A stretch of 64,000 nt of DNA, from assembly GCA_034687125.1 (NCBI GenBank), contig JAQGBZ010000003.1, positions 614,074 to 678,073 of the forward strand, written 5' to 3'. Numbering within the stretch: the first letter of the stretch is position 1; each line of letters opens with the position of its first letter. Below are positions 1 through 40,220 of this stretch, piece by piece. The DNA is from Neelides folsomi (taxonomy: Eukaryota; Arthropoda; Collembola; Neelipleona; Neelidae). The notes under the pieces were generated by a model, which was not told the DNA's origin, searched no databases, and worked only from the letters and a program-made list of their open reading frames with translations. The translations under genes were made by a program, and so were the position numbers.

Positions 1-285
1 TTTCCCACTTCCCTTTGAACCAAGAATGGCCATCATTTCTCCCGAATGGACCTCGAATGAAACATCTCGGAGGATCAGACCGCTCCTCGTTGTTCCAGTC
101 AATTGTTTCACCCATGTTGGTGGCTCAACCTTAAGAAAACCCAAATTAAATTAACTTACAAATAACTAACTTAACTTAACTTGTAATTGTAAAATTAAAA
201 TAAACGTTATTTCTCTTACATGTCCAGTATAGTACAAGTTGAGAACTTCTAATATGTAATCACTGGGACCAAGAATCGCCGACAT
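1..285 (-). CDS. ABCG5-like half-transporter, 5' part (cut by window edge)
   Basis: N-terminal end of an ABCG-family half-transporter, predicted to pair with another ABCG subunit to export sterols or other lipids across a membrane. Exon 1 (285-220, 22 codons) starts at an ATG and begins MSAILGPSDYILEV. Exon 2 starts at 129 after a CTTAAG acceptor and runs out of the window at base 1. The junction is in phase. Exon 2 carries the strand before the P-loop (SGEMMAILGSKGSGK), a canonical Walker A with its Lys at the very edge, so this subunit can bind ATP in the usual way. It is transcribed away from the complete ABCG gene at 1,002-9,980, the arrangement known for ABCG5/ABCG8. Assignment to the ABCG5 side rests on this context and the normal P-loop; the remainder lies outside the window. 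Confidence 0.82.
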
Positions 286-1001
286 GATTTGATTGTTTCA
301 CACGAGCATAGATATTGACTTCACTAAATATAATCTAAATTTAAAAAGATTTATATATTTCAATTTTTCAATGGTCCAAGCTCCAACAGCGTCTTTAGTC
401 AGTTATTGCGAATTATTGGAAACCCATTTAATGAAATGTATTGGCAATGGATGGGAAACTGTTGTGAGGAGAAAGGCTTTTGAAAGAGTGAGGTTGAGCG
501 GAGATAAAATAGGAATATTAATTTAACGGGAGGTAGTTGATAATAGAATGAAGAGAAGGCCAATGGCCCCGCATTCCACCCTGCAACACACCTTGAGGGC
601 GTCCTGACAGGTGGATTCAACCCACCCTCAGGTCTCGCACCACGGAACACACTCCCCGAAATTCCTACCCCCTTCACACCCCAACTACATCCTCTGCTCC
701 TCCGCCAACAACCATTCACTCACCATCACCCTCAAAAAGAGGATTTTAAAATTTAAATTAAAGTCCTCAAATCAATATAAGTACTCAGGACTCAAGTCCT
801 CAATTTACAATCAACAATTTCGTTTAGAACGCTTGACTTTTCTCAGTAGAGTGAGTGTTGAGACAGAAAGTGAAAGAGAAGGAAACGCCGTGAAGGAGAC
901 GCAGGAAGTGGAAAAGTTCGTCAAGTGATGATGATAATTACCAAGTTATTTAATTTATTAAATAATTAACCTCTGAGCTCTCTTCTGTGTGGTTTGGTCA
1001 A
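286..1001. promoter_or_regulatory. Shared spacer between divergent ABCG genes (putative bidirectional promoter)
   Basis: 716 bases separate the two divergent ABCG start codons. The middle part (about 540-720 and 840-930) is noticeably richer in G+C than the surrounding DNA. Open frames there (for example 399-719 minus and 611-928 plus) show no family resemblance and look like by-products of composition. Co-regulation from one promoter is inferred from the geometry; no specific factor site was identified. Confidence 0.5.
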
Positions 1002-4000
1002 ATGGAAGAGATGTGGGAAATACCGGAACGAAGGTGAGAATGTTCAAACATTGTTCTTTGAAAGATTTATATACAATATAAAGTGAATGTATTAAGTAGG
1101 AGATCTTGGAGCATATATTGTGAGATTGTTTAATTCTCCATCATGCTCCTAGATCTTGATTCATCATTTATAAGATAGATTGGAGATCATCAGGAGCGTG
1201 AAAAGACACACGTGTTAGGAATGTTCTTATTATGTAGATTAGATCAAGTTTATTGATTACGTGTCTTTGGAAGATTTTAGAAAACTATTTACAGTTTGCA
1301 CGATTACAATTTGCAATAAATTAAATACAAGACCAAAGGGCTATTTAAATGATTTGAAACTATCAGCTAAACTATTAGTAATAGTTAAGCTATTACAGTA
1401 TTTAATTATGTTATACTTAATTATAAATGTCTTATGCATGTACCATATAAAGTATAAGAAGTATACGAATCAAATTCGCAGAAACGTCGTTGATTGGATT
1501 GTAAAATTGACAATGACATTATTAGGTACACGGTTCCAACGAATCATTCCCCCTCACCTTTACGACGTGGGGGCGGTGTGGGGAATGCCGCTGAGGATCT
1601 TCATGCCTGGTCGATCTACAGACAAAACCTCAACTCCGATTTCACTGACTCGGCATTAGGGAGTGAAGAAAGGTCGCCGCTCCCCTACGGGAACTTTCAA
1701 TTGAGAGACGCGACCGTTCAGTCGATCCTCCGTCACCCCCGTCTTGCTCCACGGTCCGAACTCGGGTCAAATATGTATGCCTATCTGAAGTTCGGTCTCC
1801 CGCGGGTGTTCCCGCCATCGGCCAACAATGGCCATTCCTCGGCTATCCCAATGAGGAAGGAAAATTCGAGTGGTTATGACTCGGCTGAGGATCGGCATGG
1901 AAGCCCAATGAACCCAGCAGGTCGAAGGTCAGCCCCACCGCATACCCTTCCAATAAGACCGGCGAGGTCAGAGACGGACTTGAGAGATGGGTTAGTGCGG
2001 GACAGATTTGGGCCACCGAATGCGAACAATAGGGAAAGGAGATTAAGAGCAACTTCGGAAACAAATCTTATGGCCAGAAATTCTCATCCTTCACTCAGCA
2101 AAGCTGGTTCACAGGTCAGATATTTTTTTAAACTAATAATTAATTAATATTGTAAATGAAATATTATTAGATGTTCATTTCAGCCTTTTTTCATTTTCAT
2201 AAATAATATTATTATTTGATAAACGTGGATTTCCTCTAAATCGCCGTTTTCTGTCAAATGATTCAATTTCTTCTCCTTCTCACGCACCTTCGTTCATTTA
2301 AAAGCCCATTACTCTTCCCATCCGCCTCATTATTCTTAAAGTTTGACTTAATTTAAGGAAAGTAAAGGAGAATAATTTTATGATGACTCGTGGTATTCAA
2401 ATATGTTGGAAAAGTATATCAAAGAGCTAAAGGTTAAAGAATCTTCAAACCACTCGACACGTTCTCTATTCAAATGAATTTGAAAGCTTTATTCTCCCAT
2501 ATTAATAAATTAAAAGAACGTGGAAGACCTAACGGATCCTTCTCCTTTGTTTTCCAATGACTCATATGCGGAGTTTCAAGAATTATTCGATTATTCACAG
2601 TAGCCAAATTAATTATTCAATCTCACGAGGAGATTACTTTCCTCTATTATACATCCGATCTATTGATAGCCATGATTTGCGTACGAATTGCATGAATTAA
2701 TGTGAAGATCTTCCGTGGTCGTGTAGAGAGGTTTATGAGGATTTGGAATCAATTGATTGAGAGCATTGGGAAGTAGTTCACCATAAGAGATCTCAATGAT
2801 ATTTAAAATGTGAATCATGCAGGTGTCCCTTGTGTCGAGAGGAGGAGCGAAGGGATTTTATAGTGGACACACCGAAGACACAATTTTCAAACATCCTCAT
2901 TTACAGGTAAATTCCATTTTATTAATTTGAATTAAATTAAATATTAAAATAATGGTTTTTAGATTCTCATAGATTTGAACTACGATTTTTATCATACTTA
3001 TCTGTATTAAATTCTTTATATTAAATTCGTCGTTCGTTTAATTTTTGGGAGTGATGATTTGGAGTGATAATCCGGATTTGGTGATATGATTTTGTCATTT
3101 TAATTGTTTTAATTAACTAAATAGGTTCGAGGTTTATGCTACGAAATTGGCGGGAAAGTAACGGCGCTTGGAAAGGGCCGAATAATCGATGGACTTACCT
3201 TCGATCTACGTGGAGGAGAAATCATGGCACTTATTGCAACAACCCGTAAGATTTAATTTACCATTTAACCAGATTTCACTCACTGTGTAATTAATCGAGT
3301 GCATTTATGTAAATTAAAAAAAAGTTAAATGCAAATAGTCCCACACGTTGATCATAAAAACGATGAATTATAAAAAGAGAGGAAAAACGTGTGATGTTGG
3401 TCAATTTTCATCTCATTTGTTAAGAAAAGAATTTCCGCCCGTTAGGAAACCACAAAACTTGGTCTTTACAAAAAACTTTTTTCCATCCGTTTTTTATGAA
3501 AATAACAATAAAGTTCCACAATGTGCGTCTGTGCATGCTTTTGAAATGTGTTGATTAGTTTTCGGTTGATAAGTGGTAGGGTTCGACTAGGAGAAAATTG
3601 GCTCAGAGTTCGACATTGAGAAGATCTCTTTCGATTGTTGAGGTTTGGAATTGAATGGCCGATTGAATCCTTCATGAATCTCTCCATATAATTATTATTA
3701 TTGCATCCACATCATTTCCTCATTACTTGAAGAGAGAGATATTGAATGGAAGTCTATTCATACATCTAACTGTATTTCTACCCTTGAGAAGATGAAAGAA
3801 GTATTTGTGTGTCTCTCTCACCCTCAATGAGCTAATCGCTCCAAGAACAATTTATTTGCATGGCTCTCACGGGGAGACGGCCGGAAAGACCAATTCGTCA
3901 CAACCAAACAGTATGATTTCTGTCGTTAATCATATTCACTACACTTGACATTCTTACATTTATTTAATTAAAATTCAGCTTATGATCAAACGTGTGAGTG

Positions 4001-7000
4001 TCGATAAAATGCATGTCAGGTTTGAACTCTGTTACAAAAATAATTGTAAATGCCAGTGACCTTTATCGTAATGGATTAAACATAACGAGCAATGTGCGGA
4101 ATGTAAAAGTACAAAGACCGTAATCATTTTATCCTATTAAGACATTCGTATCGAATTAGAGTGTCAACAATGACTGGAACTATTGTTCAATAAAACACTC
4201 ATTAACTCTTTTATTCAAAGTTTATAGAACGGAGCATAACCGCCATTTTCTGTCACAACTCGACTTGGTTGACAATCGTTTAAACATATAACTCGTTACT
4301 TAAGGACTTTTACTTAAAATATATCCTTCGCATCTCATTCATTTCAAACTTATAAATAAAGTATATCCAATACTCAATGGTAATGATATTATGCTTATAT
4401 ACAGATACCAATATAAAGATATACTGATTTATACTGTATTTTGCATACCTATGCATACACACACCTACATTCAGTATACTGTAGTCATATCCATATTCAT
4501 TTTATAGAAACGAATATTTCAAGCATCATTTAAAAGCCTTATAATATGGAAATTGTGCTTAGTGTTTACTAAATCATCCCTCTGATAATTCTGCAACGAA
4601 TGCTCAACATTGGAGTGAATTAGGACGGGAAATGAGGATTTATAAAGGGAAATACACATAAGACTTTATTTTTCTTTCATTTCACGGACCCTTGCACACT
4701 TTGTCTTTTCGAGTGAAAAAAGGATAGAAGAATCTCTGAGTTTTCTTGCAAACGAAAATGAAACATTTGCTAAAAGTGAATTTGTCGTCTCTAAATGAAA
4801 AAATACCTGTAATTTTCTTTTTTCCCTTTATAATTTCCCTTCCCCCCATATAGGTATCAAATGAGAATTAGATTTTATAGTGAGCATATATTTCTAATGT
4901 ATCCTCTTCTTGCATTACAAGTTGTGACATGAGCTTTTATATAAAATGGAAAAAAGAAGATATGATCAGCATCTTTGTACATTAGTTGATTCTTGTGAGA
5001 GAAAGATAGGATTTTAATATCAAAGGGGGAATGTCCTTCTGCGCGCCTTCATACTAACAGATTTGCGTAAGGACGTCCGACGGCGAAATTCTCCTTGATG
5101 AGCTGATGAGATTTGGGGATTGCAGGGAAAATGCTCATCTCCTCTAATTACTCCTTCCCTCATCATACAATTTAGCTGAAGGGAAAGTTCTTCTTTTCAC
5201 TCCTTCTCTTTACGATGGTCATTTTCAAAAAGTGCACACAATGAACCAAGCTGACTGAGCCGGATGTTCATTTTGCGACGGTCGACTCAACTCAATTATC
5301 ATTTATGAAGACTTTACATCATGTAGGCTCATATTATAAAAAAACCAATTGTATTGTATTGTCAGTATTATGCGGTATATTGGTAGGCACACAATACATA
5401 CACATATCTGGACACTACAAGCACAATAGGTATATGTATGTGTTAAAATGTAGAATCCGTGTAATATTACATTTGCGAAATAGATGATTGGATTTTAAGT
5501 ATTTAATTCCATGCACCATTTTATTCTAACGACTACTTACTTTACTTTAAACTACTCAAATTTCTAAATTGTAATTTACAATCATTTACGGCCATTTCAA
5601 ACTCATTTAGCTTACTTGTAAATAGCAATTTGGTGACTTTCTTGTTGCAATACAAAATGTGAAAGAGGAAGATTTAAATTCTAGCCAAATACGTAAAAAT
5701 ATTTTGTTAATTTTTGTATGATTTTTGCAGGGAGTGAAGGGACGGCAGTGTTGGACGTTCTTTCAGGGCGACGACACGAGCGAGGTCGAATCGGCGGCGA
5801 GCTTTTACTCAATGGGAACAACGTGACGGCGAGTCGACTGGGCGGGCGGGTCGCGTATGTTCGACGTGACTCTCGTCTCCACCCAGACATGACAGTTGCT
5901 CAAACGATGCGGTTTCACGCCATGTTGCGGACTCCCATCATTTCACATTCATCCCTCTCAAAATCCGCCACTGTGAGAAACCATAATTATTTCTCGTGCC
6001 TTTTCAACCCCTTTGTTCCGATGATAATAAATGGGAAATGACACTTGTGCAGATGGAGAGTTTATTAGAAGATCTTGGTCTTGGGAGCGTCCGTGAGAGC
6101 TTGGTAGAGACGCTGACAACTGCAGAGCGCCAGCGGCTCTCCGTAGCTTGCCAACTTCTCCTCAATACGGAAATCCTCCTTTTAGATGATCCCACAAGAG
6201 GAATGGACATTTTCGACACGTTTTTCCTTGTATGCCAAATTAATATTTTTTATATAATTATTTAATTCATACCATTCATTTAAATATTTAGTAGCTTAAA
6301 TATCTCTTTGATATCTGATAAGAATGAGTTATTCTCATATTCGTATTTTAATTTAACTTTAAGTGCGAATACAAAATTGGTTCTAAATAAGAAATAATCA
6401 AATGAGTTTTCTTCAAGACATTCTATGTAACTACTTACTAGACAGTTTAGAAATTCCTGGCACACTTCGCAAAAACTTTTAAAATACAAGCAGCATTTAT
6501 AATATTATACTAAAAAATATTAACCGGAATTAAGTTAAATATTATAGAGATAACATATACACATAAATTAAAGGTAAAATAAGTATCACATATATAGCAC
6601 AGATATGATTTATATTTTTACTAGTTTTCTTTATCACTTTCTTGGTTTGAATTTTGATATTGGAGAAATTCTTCTTCACTTTCCTCACCGTACTCCAATT
6701 CAAATTCATCTTCGCTCTTGTCACTTCCAACATTAATAATTATTGGACTTATCCGATTAATTGAAGAGAGAATGTCCAAATCAATCAAGTTGTCCCGATC
6801 CCACATAACGTCTTCGTATTTAATTGAAAGCTTAAGACACTGTCTCCAAAGTTCAGGTGTAATTGTTCCAATGGCTTCAACAAAGCCATAAAATGCGAAT
6901 GTCTTTTCTCGATTGTTCGATTACTTCGTCAACAAGATATTTAGGTTGGACCGGCTTTTCCTTTGACATTTGAATTAATGAGACTTTGAGGAATTCATCA

Positions 7001-9980
7001 AATGAGGAAGCGTTCTGAGGAAGAGTGATTCCGTGAACCAAATTCCATTGAATAATTTGACCCTTTTTCCATCCCATATTCGGCATTAGTGTCCCTGATA
7101 CCTTAGAATTATATTATCAATATTATTATAATTACAATACAATAATTTTAATAATAATTACAATAATTTATATAATAGGAATGATATAAAAATTATATTG
7201 AACATACTCTTTTTTATGGTATCCCTTTTCATTCCCAATGTGATTAATAATCACTCTTCCAGCACAAGATTTAATCAGAAAGCCACCTATAAAACATTTT
7301 AACATTAAAGTATTAAGTATACAAAAATGGTATATTACAACCGTTCATTTTATTTTATTAAAGTATTTACTAATATATATATATAATTAAAGCTATAATT
7401 TAAATATTTCTTTTAATTGTTTTTTAAACAAAATATTATAAATATACCGGCATATCCATGCATATCTTGAAGAACTTGCCCAGACCAAGCGCCTTCCAAT
7501 TCCTTTCTTTCTGTTGTACTGACCAACATTTGTACATTACTCTATTTGAATTGAAACAGTTATTGAAGCTGTTAGAGAATAATAAAACTGAATTTCATTT
7601 TACAGCATATAATAACAATATGGTTTTTGTGTTCTAAATAACACAAAAGTAAATAGCCCAAAGGGTCCTTATTACACTAAATATATAAATTATGAAGAGA
7701 CAACACCTGGTTCTCTATAAGGCCAAAAACATAAATGAAATGCTAAAGGGAGTAGTTAAAGAAAATAAAGCCATATTGTGGAATTCCGTTGAATTGGCGC
7801 TCTGGAGGGTTGGAATAAGAAATAAGAAAATAGACATCTCCTTCCTTCACAGAATCACAGAGCTGTAAAAAAAGAGCAAAGAACATAAAAGGCGAACCTC
7901 ATTTGTTCAAGTAGCAATCCCATTGAGAAGTGTCGAGACGAACACTCTTTATATATACCAACCTGTAGATAGATGAAGAATCATCTTGTTATAAGAGGAG
8001 AAAAAACTATTTGGATTCCCCATTCATTTTACACTTTAAGACTACACAGGGATAATAATAATATGATTGCATTATGCATACATGGGATGTTTAAACGTCC
8101 CGTTTGGCAAATCTGTTATTCGCAAACAACTTCCTTATTTGTTTTTAATAAATTGCAATTAATAACTCGGTTGAAGAAACAACATAAAACGAATAAATAC
8201 TACGCATTATGCTAATTTATATTTTTATGCAAAAATGTTCGTGTTTTTTAATTAATTTTTTAATTAATAGTACACAAAAGGGATTCTATTTATGCAGATA
8301 TTTAATAATATTATATCCTATATGTTAGATGATATAAAATTTAACGATATTAGATAAAATCTTAACCATTTATTAAAATAGTGATTAATTGATTAATGTC
8401 AAATATTTAGGTTGAATATGTTCGAGAATGGGGTCGAAGAGGTCGAATTGTCATCATGACCATTCAACCCCCCACATTTGAGATCTTCTCAATGTTCAAT
8501 AAAGTTGGACTCCTTTCGACTGGACGCCTCATGTTTTACGGCGACCGAAAAGAAATGCTCCCCTATTTCGCTTTTATCGAATATCCGTGCCCAGGGTTTA
8601 AAAACCCCTCGGATTATTACCTTGACCTTGTGACACTGGACGACCTTTCGGGAGAAGCCTTGTTAGAATCAAGTCAGCGAATAGAAACCCTGGCCGACTC
8701 ATACAGGAGGAAAATGGAGCCGTTGAGCGAACCCGGCCCACCTGCCCCGCTCCCGCCTCGACCACCCCCAGCTGGGTTTTTTAAACAAATAGGAGCCATT
8801 TGGATGTACACACTCGTTTTCACTTTCCCATGGAACGTCGTCCGATGGCTTAGCCTCATGATCTTCTCAGCCTCGATTTCCATTCTCATTGGAGCCATTT
8901 TTTGGGACGTAAGGGGGAAATCTGACCAAGATCAAAACTCTGCTTCGGATCGGCTTGGACAACATTGGGCAATGTTGGCCATTGCACCGTGGCCTATTTT
9001 ATTAACATTGGTTTCAAGGGACATTCGAGGACTGCCGTACATTACAAGAGACTCTGAAGAAGGCCTTTACTCCAAAGGGCTTTATTTTATTGCTAAGGTT
9101 GGTCCTATTTAAACTTTTACACGCATACTTTTATGAATATAGCCACACGTTTTAAATTTATAATTTTATAACCCCATTTAAAATTCCTCATAAATTCCTC
9201 ATAAACATAAATTTTTTGTTTTAAATATTTACAGCTAATTGTTGAGATTCCGTTCATCACGAGCATATTTTTGGCTTACATCATCCCAGCTTATGTGATG
9301 GCCGGAATTGGGACAGATGAGAGAGAAATGACCAACTTTTATCTTTTCATTGGTAAAAATAAGATGGAAATCTCCGTGAGAAAATTTAAATTGGTACTTT
9401 AAATTGGTGGTTTGTTTCTAATAGGGTACATGGTGTTGCATTTGTACGGTCTTCGAAGTCTCCTTCTCTCTCTCATCCTCATCTTCCGGGATGTTGTGAT
9501 CGGAGGGACTGTGAGCGGAATAATTTTCTTTTGCCTCTCACTCTCTGCTGGATACTCGCTCCACAAAAATGACCTAGGAGAATGGGTGTATTGGGTGAGA
9601 GCAATTGCTCCCTCAGCTTGGCTCTTACAACCAATTGCCAAACATGAATTCGCCCTCGCATCGAGATTCGACTGTCCCAAAAACCCCGTTATTAACACCG
9701 ACCTCATCATGGTAAGCCATGACCTGGATTGACAATTTATTGAATGTGGGAATGAGGGAACTTAAACGATTTACTTTCAATTGTTTTCCAGGTCAAAGCG
9801 GACTGCGGGGTTGGAGATGGAAAAACGGCGTTGGAATGGTGGGGGTTAAGCGAATCTTGGCCAAGTTGGATTCCCGTCCTTGCGTCTTTCGCCTTCGTTT
9901 TCGTCTTTCTCATTGTTGGGATGACGGGATTCATTTTGCGACGTCATGCGCCTCCAATCCCCCCTCCAGACAAACCCTAG
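1002..9980 (+). CDS. ABCG8-like half-transporter with degenerate ATP site
   Basis: Complete ABCG half-transporter, 841 aa in ten exons that all join in phase: 1002-1033, 1526-2114, 2823-2906, 3125-3245, 5731-5972, 6053-6229, 8411-9097, 9235-9352, 9425-9711, 9792-9980. Order: long hydrophilic N-terminus (about 1-230, Ser/Pro/Arg-rich), nucleotide-binding domain (about 236-500), then a six-helix membrane domain from about 530. Motifs are degenerate. The Walker A region reads ALIATTRSEGTAV (no GxGK[ST]). The signature is LTTAERQR instead of LSGGE. Walker B is ILLLDDPT (Asp for the catalytic Glu, residue 402). The H-loop is MTIQPPT (Gln for His). Vertebrate ABCG5/ABCG8 has one inactive site, so some degeneracy is expected of an ABCG8-type subunit, but here every motif is altered. 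The frame is open and splice sites are good, so it is a functional gene, not a pseudogene. AATAAA lies at 10,093. The 2.5-kb intron 3246-5730 holds nothing recognisable. Confidence 0.88.
6621..7529 (-). pseudogene. Unrecognised small gene nested in an ABCG8-like intron, frame broken
   Basis: Coding-like sequence opposite to the host gene, inside its 2.2-kb intron (6230-8410). Possible exons: 7529-7448 (starts MLVSTTERKELEGAW), 7286-7204 (GFLIKSCAGRVIINH), and 7101 down to 6621. The first junction (GCC G|GT GGC) is clean and in phase; the second needs a weak GTTC donor. In the last block the reading shifts near 6,900: the frame giving WKKGQIIQWNLV and PKYLVDEVIE hits a stop, while the frame one base over continues NNREKTFAFYGFVEAIG and ends in an acidic tail rich in Asp/Glu. 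I do not recognise the family. Either this is a recently broken gene, or the sequence carries a one-base error, or an unseen intron restores the frame. Confidence 0.4.
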
Positions 9981-10224: not shown

Positions 10225-11989
10225 TCAACTTGTGATTCCTGATTTAAGAAGCCTCTGAAATTCTTCTTTTGAGTAACCAAGTTCGTTTAGAATTTCAAAT
10301 GAATTTTGACCAGGGTCAGGCCCCGGGCCGCTTCTAATGTTTGCAGGAGTTCTCGACAACTTGGGTGATGGTGCAGGATCAATATTTTCATCTTTATCAG
10401 TTATGAACGAATTTCTAATTGAACTTTGAGGTGATTTAGGAACCAAATTCCAATCCTCTACTGGATTGACACAAGCATCAATACTGTCAAATATATCCGT
10501 CCATTCGGCTTGAGTTTTTTCTCTAAACTTTGCAGCAACTTTGGCTTTTTTCGATTCCCAGTTTTTTGACTGGATTTGGAATTCTGGATCTGAAGAAAAT
10601 TCAAGTCCTTTTAAAAATTCTGAATAAAATTGTTGTTCGAGTGCTCCGACGGCCGTCCAATCTCATACGTGTCGTAAAAATAAGCACCAGAATCAAATCT
10701 AAAAGTGATACAACGTTACTTCGACATATGTATGTACATAACCAACAGCTAATAAACGTGTTAGTCCTGTTATAATATGTTATGTATGTTAAAAATATTG
10801 AATGGTAAAATTATTACAAATTTTATCCTCGGAGATTTCCCCATGAAATGTATCTTTGAGTTGCGAATAAAAACGAAGAAACATAAGCCGCTCCATCAGA
10901 AAAACTCAGGTCAATCACTTGACCCTTCCCCGACGTAAAACGCTCGTTGTTAGCAGCGAGAATTGCATAAGCGCCTAAAAGGCTACCACCAGCAAAACAC
11001 GCTAATATATTTCCAGGAAGTGTGGGCTTTTGATCACTTCGACCCAACAAGGATAAAACTCCTTAAAAATTAAAACAATATAGTCATTATTTAATCTTAC
11101 AGGTATTATGCCAATATTTTATTGGTAGATTCAGACATTTGTACCGGAAGCAGCGACAAAATTGATATCATGACCGGCCTTCCGTGCTTGAGGACCAGTT
11201 TGTCCGTAACCAGTAAGTCGTGCGTAGATGAGCCTTGGATTTTCTGTACAAAGGTCAGTTGGACCAAGTTTCAATTTTTCCATCACGCCTTGACAAGTTC
11301 ACGCAGTGGCCACAAAGATAGTTTTTATATATTTATTATTTCAATGACTTTTTCAAAATTTCTATCTTATAATTAACATTTATTGTGTTTACTTGATGAG
11401 AATAAGTAAAGATATGCTGGTAATTATTACTCTATTTGCTGATTCAATTAATTTAACAAACCAGGTCTGAATGGTTCAATGAAAGCATCAGCAGTCGAAA
11501 TGAGCTTTTTGAAAATCTCTTTTCCTTCTGTTGGTTTAATGTCCAAAGTAAGCGATTTCTTTCCTCTTCCCAATGAATCTGGAGATGGATATCCTATACC
11601 GGCGGCATTCATCGGACCTCTCTTAGGCTTATAAATTAAAATTTAAAATAGTAAAAACATTTTGAAATATATTTTCCAATTCATCATACCTATAGACATA
11701 TCCAATACATTAATATACTTTTTAGTGATTTGATTATATTCAATTACATTGTCCATTCTTATTACAGATGCTCCAAAATCGGCCAAGAGCATTCCTAAAT
11801 TATAGTTCAAACTAAATAAATTATAAAAACTAAAGATCATGCAGGCAAATATAATTATTTAACGATAAGTAATGTGTTGATGTGTCGATTGTATGTAGGT
11901 TAGTAAAGCAAAACTAAACAACGCAAACCGCAAAACGAAGCAGGGCCAGCTCCTGCCATTTCAACAACCCGAAATCCTTTTAACGCCAT
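10225..11989 (-). pseudogene. Alpha-methylacyl-CoA racemase, decayed tandem copy
   Basis: Six exons match the downstream-oriented neighbour exon for exon: 11989-11929, 11794-11748, 11627-11462, 11288-11145, 11061-10818, 10698-10225. The family is AMACR (class III CoA-transferase fold), which interconverts 2-methylacyl-CoA epimers in peroxisomes and mitochondria. Lesions: the aspartate that follows LIA in the neighbour's ADFAGGG is Cys here (ILACFAGGS, near 11,000); the CAA codon of RGQN is TAA (about 10,826); and 13 bases are missing near 10,660 (after the codons for FYDTYE), shifting the frame until the last exon resumes. The last 75 codons stay open and well conserved, so decay is recent. 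It also lacks the SKL tail of its partner. The histidine of AGHDIN is still present. Expression as RNA is possible; a functional racemase is not. Confidence 0.85.
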
Positions 11990-12808: not shown

Positions 12809-14594
12809 TTAGAGTTTGGAAGGAATTTTTGGCATATCCTCACTTTGTTCAGTGACTCCGCTATCACTCAACTTTTGAACTTCCTCTTTTGAATAACCGA
12901 GCTCTTGAAGGATTTCAAAAGAGTGTTGACCAGGATGAGGTCCAGGACCACTTGTAGCAAAGGCAGGAGTTCTTGACAACTTTGGTGCAGGAGCTGGCTC
13001 AATATTTCCGTCTTCATCGGATAGGAACGAATTTCTGAAATCGTTTTGAGGTGATTTGTTCACAGTTGACCAGTGCTCTACTGGCATGACACATGCGTCA
13101 GTCTTTCCAAATATTTTAACCCATTCTGCTTGGGTCTTTTCTTTGAATTTATCGACGATTATTATTTTTCTGGATTCAAAGTCTCCAAATTGTACTTGGA
13201 ATTTGGGATCTTCTGATAATCCTAGACCTTTTAATAACAATGAATAGAATTGTGGTTCTAGGGCTCCAACTGACATCCATAACCCGTCCTTCGTCTCATA
13301 CGTGTCGTAGAAATGGGAACCGCTGTCCAATCTAAAAGAAAGGAGAAAAAATTACTTAAGCTATTTATGCACATTAAAAATATTTTTAATATAAAAGTTA
13401 GCAAAGTACACACTAAGTTTAAGCCATTTTACGATATTTAATATTTTTATTACAAATTTTGGCCACGAGGATTTCCCCAGTATGGGCATTTTTGAGTTGT
13501 GAACAAAAAAGATGAAACATAAGATGCGCCTTCAGCCAAACTCAAGTCGATCACTTGTCCTTTTCCGGAAATTCCACGCTCAAAAATTGCAGCTAGAATT
13601 GCATACGCACACAAAAGCCCTCCACCAGCGAAATCAGCTATTAAATTAACTGGCGGTGTTGGTTTCTCCCCGCTTCGACCCAAAAATGACAAAACTCCTA
13701 AAAGCCAAATGCAAATTAAGAAAAATATTTCTATAAATCTTAAAAAGTTAAAAACAAATATAGTTAGGTAATTATTTAATGATTAGAATACAATATATAC
13801 CGGAAGTTGCTACATAGTTAATGTCATGGCCTGCCAACATTGAGTAAGGTCCAGTTTGTCCATATCCAGAAATACGAGCGTATATGAGTTTAGGATTTAC
13901 AGCGTTAAAATCATTTGGTCCGAGTTTCAATTTTTCCATTACACCTGTGTATGTACATACAATCATAAGGCAAATGTATCTAAAATTGGTTTTAAATTTA
14001 ATAATTTTTACATTAATTATTAATTATTTTACCTGGCCTGAAAGGCTCGATTAAAACATCAGCAGTTGAAATGAGTTTTTTCACTATTCCTTGCCCTTCT
14101 TTTGATTTGATATCCAGAGCTAGCGATTTCTTTCCTCTCCCTAACGTGTCTGGCAACCCAATATTGTTCATCGGGCCGCTCTTTGGTTTCTCAAGTAAAA
14201 GGACAACACAAACAATAAAAACAACTACGTTAGGTTAGGTTAATAGTAATATAGTTAATGATATGATTAAGTATTAAAGCCCAACACCGAATGCCGTATA
14301 TTTTTATTTCCCAACCTTGTCTACTCTTATCACCGAAGCTCCAAAGTCCGCAAGGAGCATTCCTAAATTCCAAATACAATTATCATTACATGTTGGAGTT
14401 AAATACCCGAAATTCCAAATCATCCAAAATAATTTACATAATAAATTGCTAAATAATTATAAATATGTGATATATGTATTACAATCTGATATAAAATATA
14501 CATATAGTATTATACTAATTTATAATCAAATACCGCAAAATGGAGCAGGAGCGAGTCCCGCCATTTCAATCACCCGTATCCCTTTTAAAGCCAT
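12809..14594 (-). CDS. Amacr: Alpha-methylacyl-CoA racemase (intact, peroxisomal)
   Basis: Converts (R)-2-methylacyl-CoA to the (S) form so that branched-chain fatty acids or sterol side chains can enter peroxisomal beta-oxidation. Six exons, all in phase: 14594-14534, 14362-14316, 14189-14033, 13944-13801, 13697-13454, 13331-12809; 391 aa (human AMACR 382). Diagnostic stretches: [15 protein letters not shown] at the N-terminus, [28 protein letters not shown] with the catalytic His at 128, [10 protein letters not shown] with the catalytic Asp at 158 (the same 30-residue spacing as the human pair), then GKGQVIDLS. The last three residues are SKL, a classic type 1 peroxisomal signal. A decayed copy lies about 0.8 kb further along in the direction of transcription, showing a local tandem duplication. 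Confidence 0.93.
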
Positions 14595-37972: not shown

Positions 37973-40220
37973 ATGGCTTTGTTGAAGGTTGTTCTCTCTT
38001 TTTTAATTTTAACGATCACCTTCGTGGTGGGTCAAGATGAAGGAATCAAACTTAACTGTCGACTTCCATCAAGCATCCAAGAAGAAATTGACGCTAAAAA
38101 GTCAGATGTCGACAGAATTGTTAAACACATTCTCGATGGACCTTTCAAAGGGATAGCGTACACAAAACTTGCAGATTTTGTCGACAAGTTTGGATCCCGA
38201 GTGACTGGAGCTGAAAGTCTTGAATTATCCATTGCCTACATGGTCGAATACATGACCAATGACAACTTGACCGTTACAACAGAACAAGTTGAGATTCCAG
38301 CTTGGTCAAGGTAAAAATTTAGTTCAGAATTGGGGCAATGATGAACAATATTTAGGCGCACCTATGATTAATTGATAATATTAAATTCATAGATGGCAGG
38401 ATCATTCAACTCATTTCACCCCGAAACAATAAAGCCGGATAATATTAATTAATTTTAATTTTTACTTTAGAGGCGAAGAGCACGCTTCAATCACAGCACC
38501 AAGACCCAAACCTCTTCTTGGACTTGGAGAATCCGTGCGAACAGGGCTTGATGGAATCGAAGCTGAAGTTCTTGTTGTCACCTCATTCACCGAACTTGAA
38601 CAGAAGAAAGCTGAAGCTATGGGGAAAATAGTTGTCTTTAATCAACCGTATAACAACTACCACACCTCGGTTGAATATCGAACACGAGGAGCTAACGAAG
38701 CAGCCAAAATTGGAGCTGTTGCGGCGCTGATTCGCTCCATTACTCCATTTTCCCTCGATACTCCCCACACTGGACATTTCTTTTATGATAATGAAGTGAC
38801 AAAAATCCCGGCTGCTTGCATTACAATTGAAGATGCTGAGCTCCTTCATCGATTGTCAATAAGTATTTGATCATCTAAGCAAAAATATTATTTTATATAC
38901 ATATTAAAAATAATAATAGTCATATACAAATACAATCTCATTGATATTAAAGTAAACATTGGGGCTATTCTTTTTGCCATAAGAATGACCATTTATACTA
39001 TCATTTCTATGTTAAATAACAAAAATTTCGAATGAAATAATTCGAAATAATAATAATTGAGCTCAATTCAAATCTTGTTATTTAATATAGAAATGATGCT
39101 ATAAATGGTCATTCTTATGGCAACAAGATTAGCCCCTATGTTTACTTTAATACCAATGAGTATAACAAATATATGATTTGTTTAATAATAGTGGGGCAAG
39201 TTATAAAAATTAATTTCACAATGCTTCCAACAATTGAAGAAAACAAAGAATCAAAGAACGCAATTGGTGATTTTGTCGGAAAAACTTTACCTGACGAACA
39301 TGTAATCATATCAGCTCATATTGATAGCTGGGATGTTGGACAAGTAAAATGACTTATAATTAAAATTCCAATCAAAATTAATTAAATTGACCACTTAATA
39401 AAAATAATTATGATTAATTAAAAGTTAGGAAGGTAAAACTATTCAATTAAAATGTTTAATTGATATTTGAGGGTGCAATGGATGACGGTGGCGGTGTGAT
39501 TATTTCCGCTGAAGTTCACAATGTTCTCACTGATTTGAATCTTCACCCAAAGCGAACCATCCGAACAGTTCTTTGGACAGCGGAAGAATTTGGGCTTCTT
39601 GGAGGAAGATCTTATGTTGAAACCCATAAGGCCAATCTTGATAAAATCTCTGCAGCTTTCGAATCCGACTCTGGAACTTTTAATCCTCTTGGGTTGGATT
39701 ATGCAGGAAGTGAAGATGCGGGGTGCATTTTGCAAGCTATTTTAGCATTGGCACCATCGCTCAACGCGAGCATGTTGAGAAGACGCGAGAGAGTTAGCAC
39801 AGACATTGTGCATTTACAAGATCAAGGTGTTCCGGGAGTTTCGCTTAATTCGGACGAATCCATGTACTTTTGGTATCATCATTCGGAAGCTGACACAATG
39901 ACCATTCAAGACCCAGACCAAATGGACTCTTGTCTAGCTCTTTATACCATTTCTTCTTATGTCCTCGCTGACTTGTCAATTAAACTACCACGGTACAATT
40001 TTAATTTTTTAACCATGAATTCACTAAAGTTTAATAAATTACTTACCCATTCTTAATTCTTATTGTTAATTTTTAAATTAAATGTAATTTGATTTTTAGT
40101 GGAAATTCGAGTGAATGGATTGTTGACCCCGATTTTGATGATAATTCCGGAATGAGAATTAATACAATGAACATTATTTACTTAATGCTTATAATTTCAT
40201 TATTCTACAATTTATATTAA
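37973..40220 (+). CDS. Carboxypeptidase Q-like (plasma glutamate carboxypeptidase, peptidase M28)
   Basis: Zinc dipeptidase/aminopeptidase of family M28, secreted or lysosomal. Five exons in phase: 37973-38310, 38471-38862, 39192-39343, 39472-39992, 40100-40220; 507 aa. A signal peptide (ALLKVVLSFLILTITFVVG) leads. The PA-type insert includes GKIVVFNQPYNNY. The catalytic domain has all expected metal and catalytic residues: H286 (SAHIDSWDVG), D298 (GAMDDGGG), E332/E333 (WTAEEFG), D360 (ESDSGT) and H430/H431 (FWYHHSEADT). Oddity: the last exon adds a hydrophobic tail (NIIYLMLIISLFYNLY) after a short acidic/Ser stretch, which looks like a GPI-attachment or membrane-anchor signal rather than the soluble end of vertebrate CPQ. 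AATAAA at 40,236. A foldback repeat sits in the second intron. Confidence 0.92.
38937..39160. repeat. 224-base foldback (MITE-like inverted repeat) in a CPQ-like intron
   Basis: The left arm (38,937 to about 39,029) and right arm (about 39,070-39,160) are near-perfect reverse complements with only a few mismatches, around a loop of about 40 bases. Matching pieces include ATTAAAGTAAACAT on one arm and its complement near 39,140, and CCATAAGAATGACCATTTAT with its complement near 39,105. No coding capacity. A non-autonomous hairpin transposon is the likely origin; a clear target-site duplication was not made out. Confidence 0.8.

What the first reader, a model, noticed from the sequence alone, without database searches (positions are those of the whole stretch)
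3125..8500. ABCG8-like subunit with every ATP-site motif degenerate
Walker A is ATTRSEGTA (no Lys), the signature LTTAE (no SGG), Walker B ends DDPT (Asp402 for Glu) and the H-loop has Gln for His. The partner at 1-285 keeps a proper P-loop. In the known ABCG5/8 dimer the working site combines the ABCG5 Walker motifs with the ABCG8 signature, so loss of that signature here would leave neither composite site canonical. Yet the frame, splice sites and membrane domain are intact over 841 codons. The pair may hydrolyse ATP by an altered mechanism, or this subunit may be structural.
Basis: partly seen in the sequence, partly recalled or inferred. Interest (0 to 1): 0.72.

Follow-up and report, generated by a model that had tools for sequence, protein, structure and literature searches.

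The report
Sterol-transporter pair with altered ATP sites
This genome, probably an insect's, carries an intact version of the paired animal sterol pump ABCG5/ABCG8 in which both ATP-using sites look disabled, so the pair may do its job without the usual ATP engine.

Summary
Confirmed and extended. The gene is an ABCG8-like half-transporter (10 exons, 841 aa), head-to-head with an ABCG5-like gene (6 exons, 631 aa) of which only the start lies in the window. ABCG8 has altered Walker A, Q-loop, signature, catalytic Glu and H-loop His. The partner, mostly outside the window, keeps the P-loop Lys and catalytic Glu but not the Thr after the Lys, the Q-loop Gln, the signature (LTPPE) or the H-loop His. 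So neither composite ATP site is canonical. No alternative P-loop exon was seen, no second copy was found, and 17 of 19 other ABC regions examined show a canonical P-loop. One of the two interface salt-bridge sets of human ABCG5/G8 is kept; the other is lost on both subunits. Printed probes suggest that Drosophila CG11069 shares the altered ABCG5 signature; printed primers suggest that a copepod ABCG8 shares PPT for QPR but keeps the H-loop His. Most likely a maintained pair without canonical ATP hydrolysis. No assay or orthologue alignment was possible. A new variant of a known kind.

The parts
1002..1033 (+). ABCG8-like exon 1 (start codon, 10 codons + 2 bases); least certain exon
   Evidence: gene model; the open frame of exon 2 has no Met upstream
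1526..2114 (+). ABCG8-like exon 2, long N-terminal extension without Pfam match
2823..2906 (+). ABCG8-like exon 3
3125..3245 (+). ABCG8-like exon 4, start of NBD, front of the altered Walker A (IATT and first base of the Arg codon)
5731..5972 (+). ABCG8-like exon 5, rest of Walker A (SEGTA) and Q-loop (Gln to Arg)
6053..6229 (+). ABCG8-like exon 6, signature LTTAE and Walker B LLLDDPT
8411..9097 (+). ABCG8-like exon 7, H-loop TIQPPT, NPXDFXXD equivalent NPSDYYLD, start of the membrane domain
9235..9352 (+). ABCG8-like exon 8, membrane domain
9425..9711 (+). ABCG8-like exon 9, membrane domain
9792..9980 (+). ABCG8-like exon 10, C-terminus and stop
220..285 (-). ABCG5-like exon 1 (start codon at 285)
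1..129 (-). ABCG5-like exon 2, part inside the window (continues 96 bases beyond it); carries P-loop GSKGSGKK. Exons 3-6 lie outside the window at G000:C3:613555-613798, 613134-613406, 612573-612986, 611782-612455
286..1001 (.). 716 bp between the two start codons, possibly a shared promoter region
   Evidence: coordinates; function inferred

Best explanation
These are the ABCG5 and ABCG8 orthologues of a probable insect, still an intact divergent gene pair that should encode a heterodimer, but with neither composite nucleotide site able to hydrolyse ATP in the canonical way (shown at sequence level; biochemically inferred). The NBDs are kept as folded dimerisation and regulatory modules. I think it most likely that the pair moves or senses a lipid, probably a sterol, without canonical ATP hydrolysis, for example as a downhill facilitator or sensor (inferred, about 0.3). 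The confidence below is for the first part, a maintained orthologous pair lacking any canonical ATP site; the slow-ATPase rival overlaps with it.
For: First solved-structure hits: human ABCG8 (4.5e-50) and human ABCG5 (2e-60); both have ABC_tran and ABC2_membrane. Human NBS2, which can hydrolyse ATP, is ABCG5 Walker A plus ABCG8 signature; NBS1 is degenerate (PMC8100176, passages). Here the NBS2 equivalent has GSKGSGKK, no Q-loop Gln, Glu for the H-loop His and LTTAE; the NBS1 equivalent has ATTRSEGTA, Asp for Glu, Gln for His and LTPPE. Both subunits align with a 5-residue gap just before the signature. No second copy among the matches found. No other P-loop in the scanned introns or locus, with a positive control. 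Genome control: 17 of 19 other ABC regions examined show GxxGxGK[S/T]; of the other two, L046 shows GCGKTS at the front of an open stretch and in L047 none was recovered. The 6 H-loops that the pattern found in 5 other ABCG-like regions read HQP. Interface: the human set ABCG5 R253 with ABCG8 D319/D323 is kept (R221; D483, D487) and the set ABCG8 R273 with ABCG5 D299/D303 is lost on both sides (T437; M267, C271). Fly CG11069 probes read QVAHKRVEYLNIS and IGIQLVRDPVMLL, which places N and S where the signature Ser and Gly would be and shows the same short spacer. CG11069 is named among the positive hits of a fly male-fertility RNAi screen (PMC12227202, passages).
Against: The partner keeps the P-loop Lys, Walker B Asp and catalytic Glu, so weak or unusual ATP binding or hydrolysis is possible. 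ABCG8 identity by score is close: 173.6 bits to human ABCG8 against 168.3 to human ABCG5; it leans on the gene arrangement and on published arthropod trees. A copepod ABCG8 seems to keep the H-loop His, so full degeneracy is not arthropod-wide. Taken as a block, motif residues are no less like human than the rest of the NBD (ABCG8 17 of 44 vs 69 of 220; ABCG5 20 of 44 vs 78 of 216). The salt-bridge split has a 2 in 20 chance by simple counting. Fly PL2 is weak alone (118 of 500 shuffles as good), PL1 was not placed securely (best frame 60 of 500), and the copepod forward primer has a near-rival placement (score 26 vs 24). No transcripts, orthologue alignment, dN/dS or assay; no substrate is shown.
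Confidence: 0.7

Rival explanations
1. One residual ATP site works by an altered chemistry: the ABCG5 P-loop Lys and Walker B Asp-Glu bind and slowly hydrolyse ATP with a substituted C-loop (LTTAE) and an acidic H-loop residue, giving a slow or regulatory ATPase.
For: ABCG5 keeps GSKGSGK and LLADEP. [quoted passage not shown]
Against: In that same site the Thr after the Lys, the Q-loop Gln, the His and the signature Ser and Gly are changed. PMC7756502 says that putting the human degenerate changes into the intact site gives an inactive transporter in vivo.
Confidence: 0.25
2. Decaying genes: the pair is losing its function in this small genome and the motifs are drifting.
For: Many changes and no function shown here. 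A Tribolium RNAi survey lists no phenotype for the divergent neighbours TcABCG-9C/9D, which I infer from their coordinates alone to be the orthologues (PMC3560195, passages).
Against: 16 exons can be joined in frame with GT-AG introns; membrane domains are recognised; some of the changes seem shared with fly and copepod; coupled interface pattern.
Confidence: 0.08
3. Assembly or gene-model error hides canonical exons.
For: Only one assembly is held and the gene was modelled without transcripts.
Against: No other P-loop in the scanned introns or locus; frames are continuous through each motif; no second copy found.
Confidence: 0.03

Closest known systems
Human ABCG5/ABCG8 sterol exporter (5DO7, 7JR7, 7R87 and others)
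   Same: First solved-structure hits of both subunits, NBD then membrane domain, divergent neighbouring genes, one NPXDFXXD salt-bridge set kept
   Different: Human keeps one site that can hydrolyse ATP (ABCG5 Walker A plus ABCG8 signature); here that site is changed too, both subunits are 5 residues shorter before the signature, and ABCG8 has a long N-terminal extension
Arthropod pairs: Drosophila CG31121/CG11069, T. urticae tetur01g16280/16290, Daphnia, salmon louse
   Same: Head-to-head ABCG8/ABCG5 pairs in fly, mite and Daphnia (PMC3724490); single orthologues in the arthropods analysed (PMC4587908). CG11069 seems to share the altered signature region
ABC transporters with one degenerate site, such as Pdr5; CFTR, SUR, TAP and TmrAB are recalled
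   Same: Degenerate motifs in working proteins
   Different: Those keep one consensus composite site (recalled); here neither is consensus

Membership tests
ABCG5/ABCG8 orthologues | Best match to ABCG8 and ABCG5 respectively among solved ABCG proteins | tested here: met
   the ABCG8 margin is small (173.6 vs 168.3 bits), the ABCG5 margin large (208.1 vs 160.7)
ABCG5/ABCG8 orthologues | NBD followed by ABC2 membrane domain in one half-transporter | tested here: met
ABCG5/ABCG8 orthologues | Adjacent genes in head-to-head orientation | tested here: met
   start codons 716 bp apart
ABCG5/ABCG8 orthologues | Phylogenetic placement with arthropod orthologues | not tested
   no full arthropod orthologue was found (ABCG5 query in viral contigs; ABCG8 query in genome contigs); fragments only
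ABCG5/ABCG8 orthologues | Sterol transport by an obligate heterodimer | not testable with these tools
   needs expression and assay
ABC transporter with at least one canonical composite ATP site | One site with GxxGxGK[S/T], Q-loop Gln, Walker B Asp-Glu and H-loop His facing an LSGG[Q/E] signature | tested here: not met
   both sites
Pseudogene | Frame breaks or broken splice sites | tested here: not met
   model chosen by hand to be open, no transcripts

The most novel reading that the evidence does not exclude
In insects the ABCG5/G8 pair has given up ATP hydrolysis and become a passive or regulated sterol conduit or sensor, fitting sterol auxotrophs that gain nothing from pumping sterol out; the NBDs persist as a dimer clamp held by one of the two ancestral salt-bridge sets.
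Probability: 0.2. Interest if true: 0.82.

Novelty: new variant of a known kind. Interest (0 to 1): 0.55.

Why it matters
Two surveys seen here take arthropod ABCG5/8 to have functions like the human sterol exporters (PMC3724490; PMC7339416), while PMC4587908 says their functions remain to be identified (passages in each case). If both ATP sites are gone in a maintained pair, that transfer of function fails, and the pair becomes a natural test of what an ABCG fold does without its motor.

Tried and rejected
Alternative P-loop, signature or H-loop exons: one search printed nothing with patterns that could not match the partner's own GSKGSGKK, so one search repeated it with looser patterns and a positive control (L036). 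In ABCG8 introns 3-6 it gave one signature-like ISKGE at 5017 in a short frame (taken as chance) and otherwise nothing; over the whole locus the only P-loop was the ABCG5 one. Orthologues: ABCG5 query in viral contigs, none; ABCG8 query in genome contigs, two bacterial contigs with weak NBD matches. Tetranychid mite origin: no intradiol dioxygenase match. Probable insect: cuticle domain PF00379 39 matches, and weak matches to 7tm_6 (3, best 8e-8) and PBP_GOBP (2, best 1.2e-4); a strepsipteran is only my guess from genome size. Probe PL1 and the copepod ABCG5 X1 primers were not placed reliably and were dropped from the argument. NCBIfam gave only broad ABC and pigment-precursor-permease matches, the latter far under its cut-off. 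Structure prediction was not used: its stated rule asks for proteins that the DNA gives letter for letter, and these are spliced. Paper searches aimed at degenerate ATP sites in arthropod ABCG5/8, in these genes, or in ABC transporters generally: among the papers listed I saw none that describes it. Several lists were capped (24 found, 20 listed; 1,714 and 30; 87 and 15), only open-licence PMC papers are held, and of 15 papers opened I saw passages only.

Full report
What is there. The window lies at G000:C3:614074-678073 of a 75.1-Mb, 840-contig genome. Thirty-nine cuticle-domain matches, with weak 7tm_6 (3) and PBP_GOBP (2) matches, point to an arthropod and probably an insect. From base 1002 the plus strand carries a 10-exon gene for 841 residues. 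From base 285 the minus strand carries a 6-exon gene for 631 residues that runs out of the window and was completed from the upstream 9.7 kb. Exon ends were placed by hand at GT-AG sites that keep the frame; no transcripts were available. Solved-structure searches put human ABCG8 first for the former (4.5e-50; 173.6 bits, against 168.3 for human ABCG5) and human ABCG5 first for the latter (2e-60; 208.1 bits, against 160.7 for ABCG8). Both have ABC_tran and ABC2_membrane domains.

The motifs. Aligned to human letters, ABCG8 here reads ATTRSEGTA for Walker A, Arg for the Q-loop Gln, LTTAE for the signature, LLLDDPT for Walker B and TIQPPT for the H-loop. ABCG5 reads GSKGSGKKA (Lys kept, next Thr now Lys), has no Q-loop Gln, and reads LTPPE, LLADEP (Asp-Glu kept) and TMEKPR (His now Glu). 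Human NBS2, formed by the ABCG5 Walker A and the ABCG8 signature, can hydrolyse ATP, while NBS1 is degenerate (PMC8100176, passages; PMC7756502, passages). Here both composite sites depart from the consensus at several positions. Both subunits also align with a five-residue gap just before the signature. As a block the motif residues are no less like human than the rest of the NBD (17 of 44 vs 69 of 220 in ABCG8; 20 of 44 vs 78 of 216 in ABCG5), because much of Walker B and, in ABCG8, NPXDFXXD is kept.

Controls. The scan of ABCG8 introns 3-6 and of the whole locus found no further P-loop, and found the P-loop of a control region; one split by an extra intron would be missed. No second copy of either gene appeared among the matches found, which the tool calls lower bounds. 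Of 19 other ABC regions examined, 17 show GxxGxGK[S/T]; L046 shows GCGKTS at the front of an open stretch and in L047 none was recovered. The five ABCG-like regions among them (L035-L038, L046; so called from their matches or by look) each show an ISGG or LSGG signature, and the six H-loops that the pattern found in them read HQP. Base shuffling of the NBD codons gave no open frame in 2000 trials for either gene, a weak test because the exons were chosen to be open.

The dimer interface. In human ABCG5/G8 two salt-bridge sets hold the NBDs together: ABCG5 R253 with ABCG8 D319/D323, and ABCG8 R273 with ABCG5 D299/D303 (PMC8100176). Here the first set is complete (R221; D483, D487) and all three residues of the second are gone, on both subunits (T437; M267, C271). 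Loss in step suggests that the two proteins still pair, though by simple counting such a split has a 2 in 20 chance.

Is it only this assembly? No full arthropod orthologue was reached, but printed reagents give fragments. Three padlock probes for fly CG11069 (PMC12227202) were split into arms and read in sense. PL3 reads IGIQLVRDPVMLL and matches this ABCG5 at 170-182 (7 of 13; 0 of 500 shuffles as good). PL2 reads QVAHKRVEYLNIS and falls just upstream on QVAGSSVESLTPP (6 of 13; weak alone, 118 of 500). PL1 was not placed securely (best frame 60 of 500). On this reading the fly has N and S where the signature Ser and Gly would be, and the same short spacer. PCR primers of the copepod 'ABCG5 isoform X2' (PMC4247197) read IHPPTY and AFIDYP and match this ABCG8 at 433 and 469, in the right order (12 of 500 and 1 of 500 shuffles as good). 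That copepod protein is therefore probably the ABCG8 orthologue, with PPT in place of QPR but the His kept. The primers of isoform X1 gave no usable match (488 and 324 of 500). So part of the change looks old and part is not shown outside this genome.

How it may work. The shown part is sequence: an intact, divergent pair without a canonical ATP site. The inferred part is that the pair acts without canonical ATP hydrolysis, most simply as a lipid or sterol facilitator or sensor. A slow ATPase using the ABCG5 Walker A and B is the main rival, since Lys and Asp-Glu remain there. In vivo hints are thin. CG11069 is named among positive hits of a fly male-fertility screen (PMC12227202, passages), and was validated in a coconut-oil diet screen in which the effect on pupation was almost null on retest (PMC8960806, passage). 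Knock-down of genes named ABCG5 and ABCG8 in a silkmoth raised mortality under an insecticide (PMC13116884, passages); their orthology was not checked. In Tribolium a divergent neighbouring pair that I infer from coordinates to be the orthologues is not among the genes with phenotypes (PMC3560195, passages).

Novelty. Head-to-head ABCG5/8 pairs in arthropods are known. Two surveys seen here take their function to be like the human one (PMC3724490, PMC7339416, passages), while PMC4587908 says it remains to be identified (passages). The whitefly survey lists its ABCG8 as TMD only, from a sequence marked partial (PMC5405539, passages). Among the papers listed by the searches named in Tried and rejected I saw none on degenerate ATP sites in these arthropod genes. 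I file it as a new variant of a known kind.

Noticed in passing
window 1526-2906 (ABCG8 residues 11-235): Long N-terminal extension before the NBD (alignment to human ABCG8 starts at residue 256 here, 88 in 7r87_B) with no Pfam match. ABCG8 orthologues in other surveys are long too: 915 aa in T. urticae, 978 or 1001 aa in salmon louse, 952 aa, marked partial, in whitefly.
   Followed up: partly
window 6600-7600 (inside intron 6230-8410): Dispersed repeat relics: 10 further partial matches in this genome at 70-85% identity.
   Followed up: partly
window 10228-10662 and 12812-13351, minus strand: Two neighbouring CoA-transferase family III exons, similar to each other by eye, apparently a tandem duplication; alpha-methylacyl-CoA racemase-like is recalled.
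   Followed up: partly
window 39460-40053, plus strand: Open frame matching peptidase family M28.
   Followed up: no
PMC4247197 Table 1 (copepod Tigriopus japonicus): The copepod gene named ABCG5 isoform X2 (KF906304) is probably the ABCG8 orthologue, judged from its two primers.
   Followed up: partly
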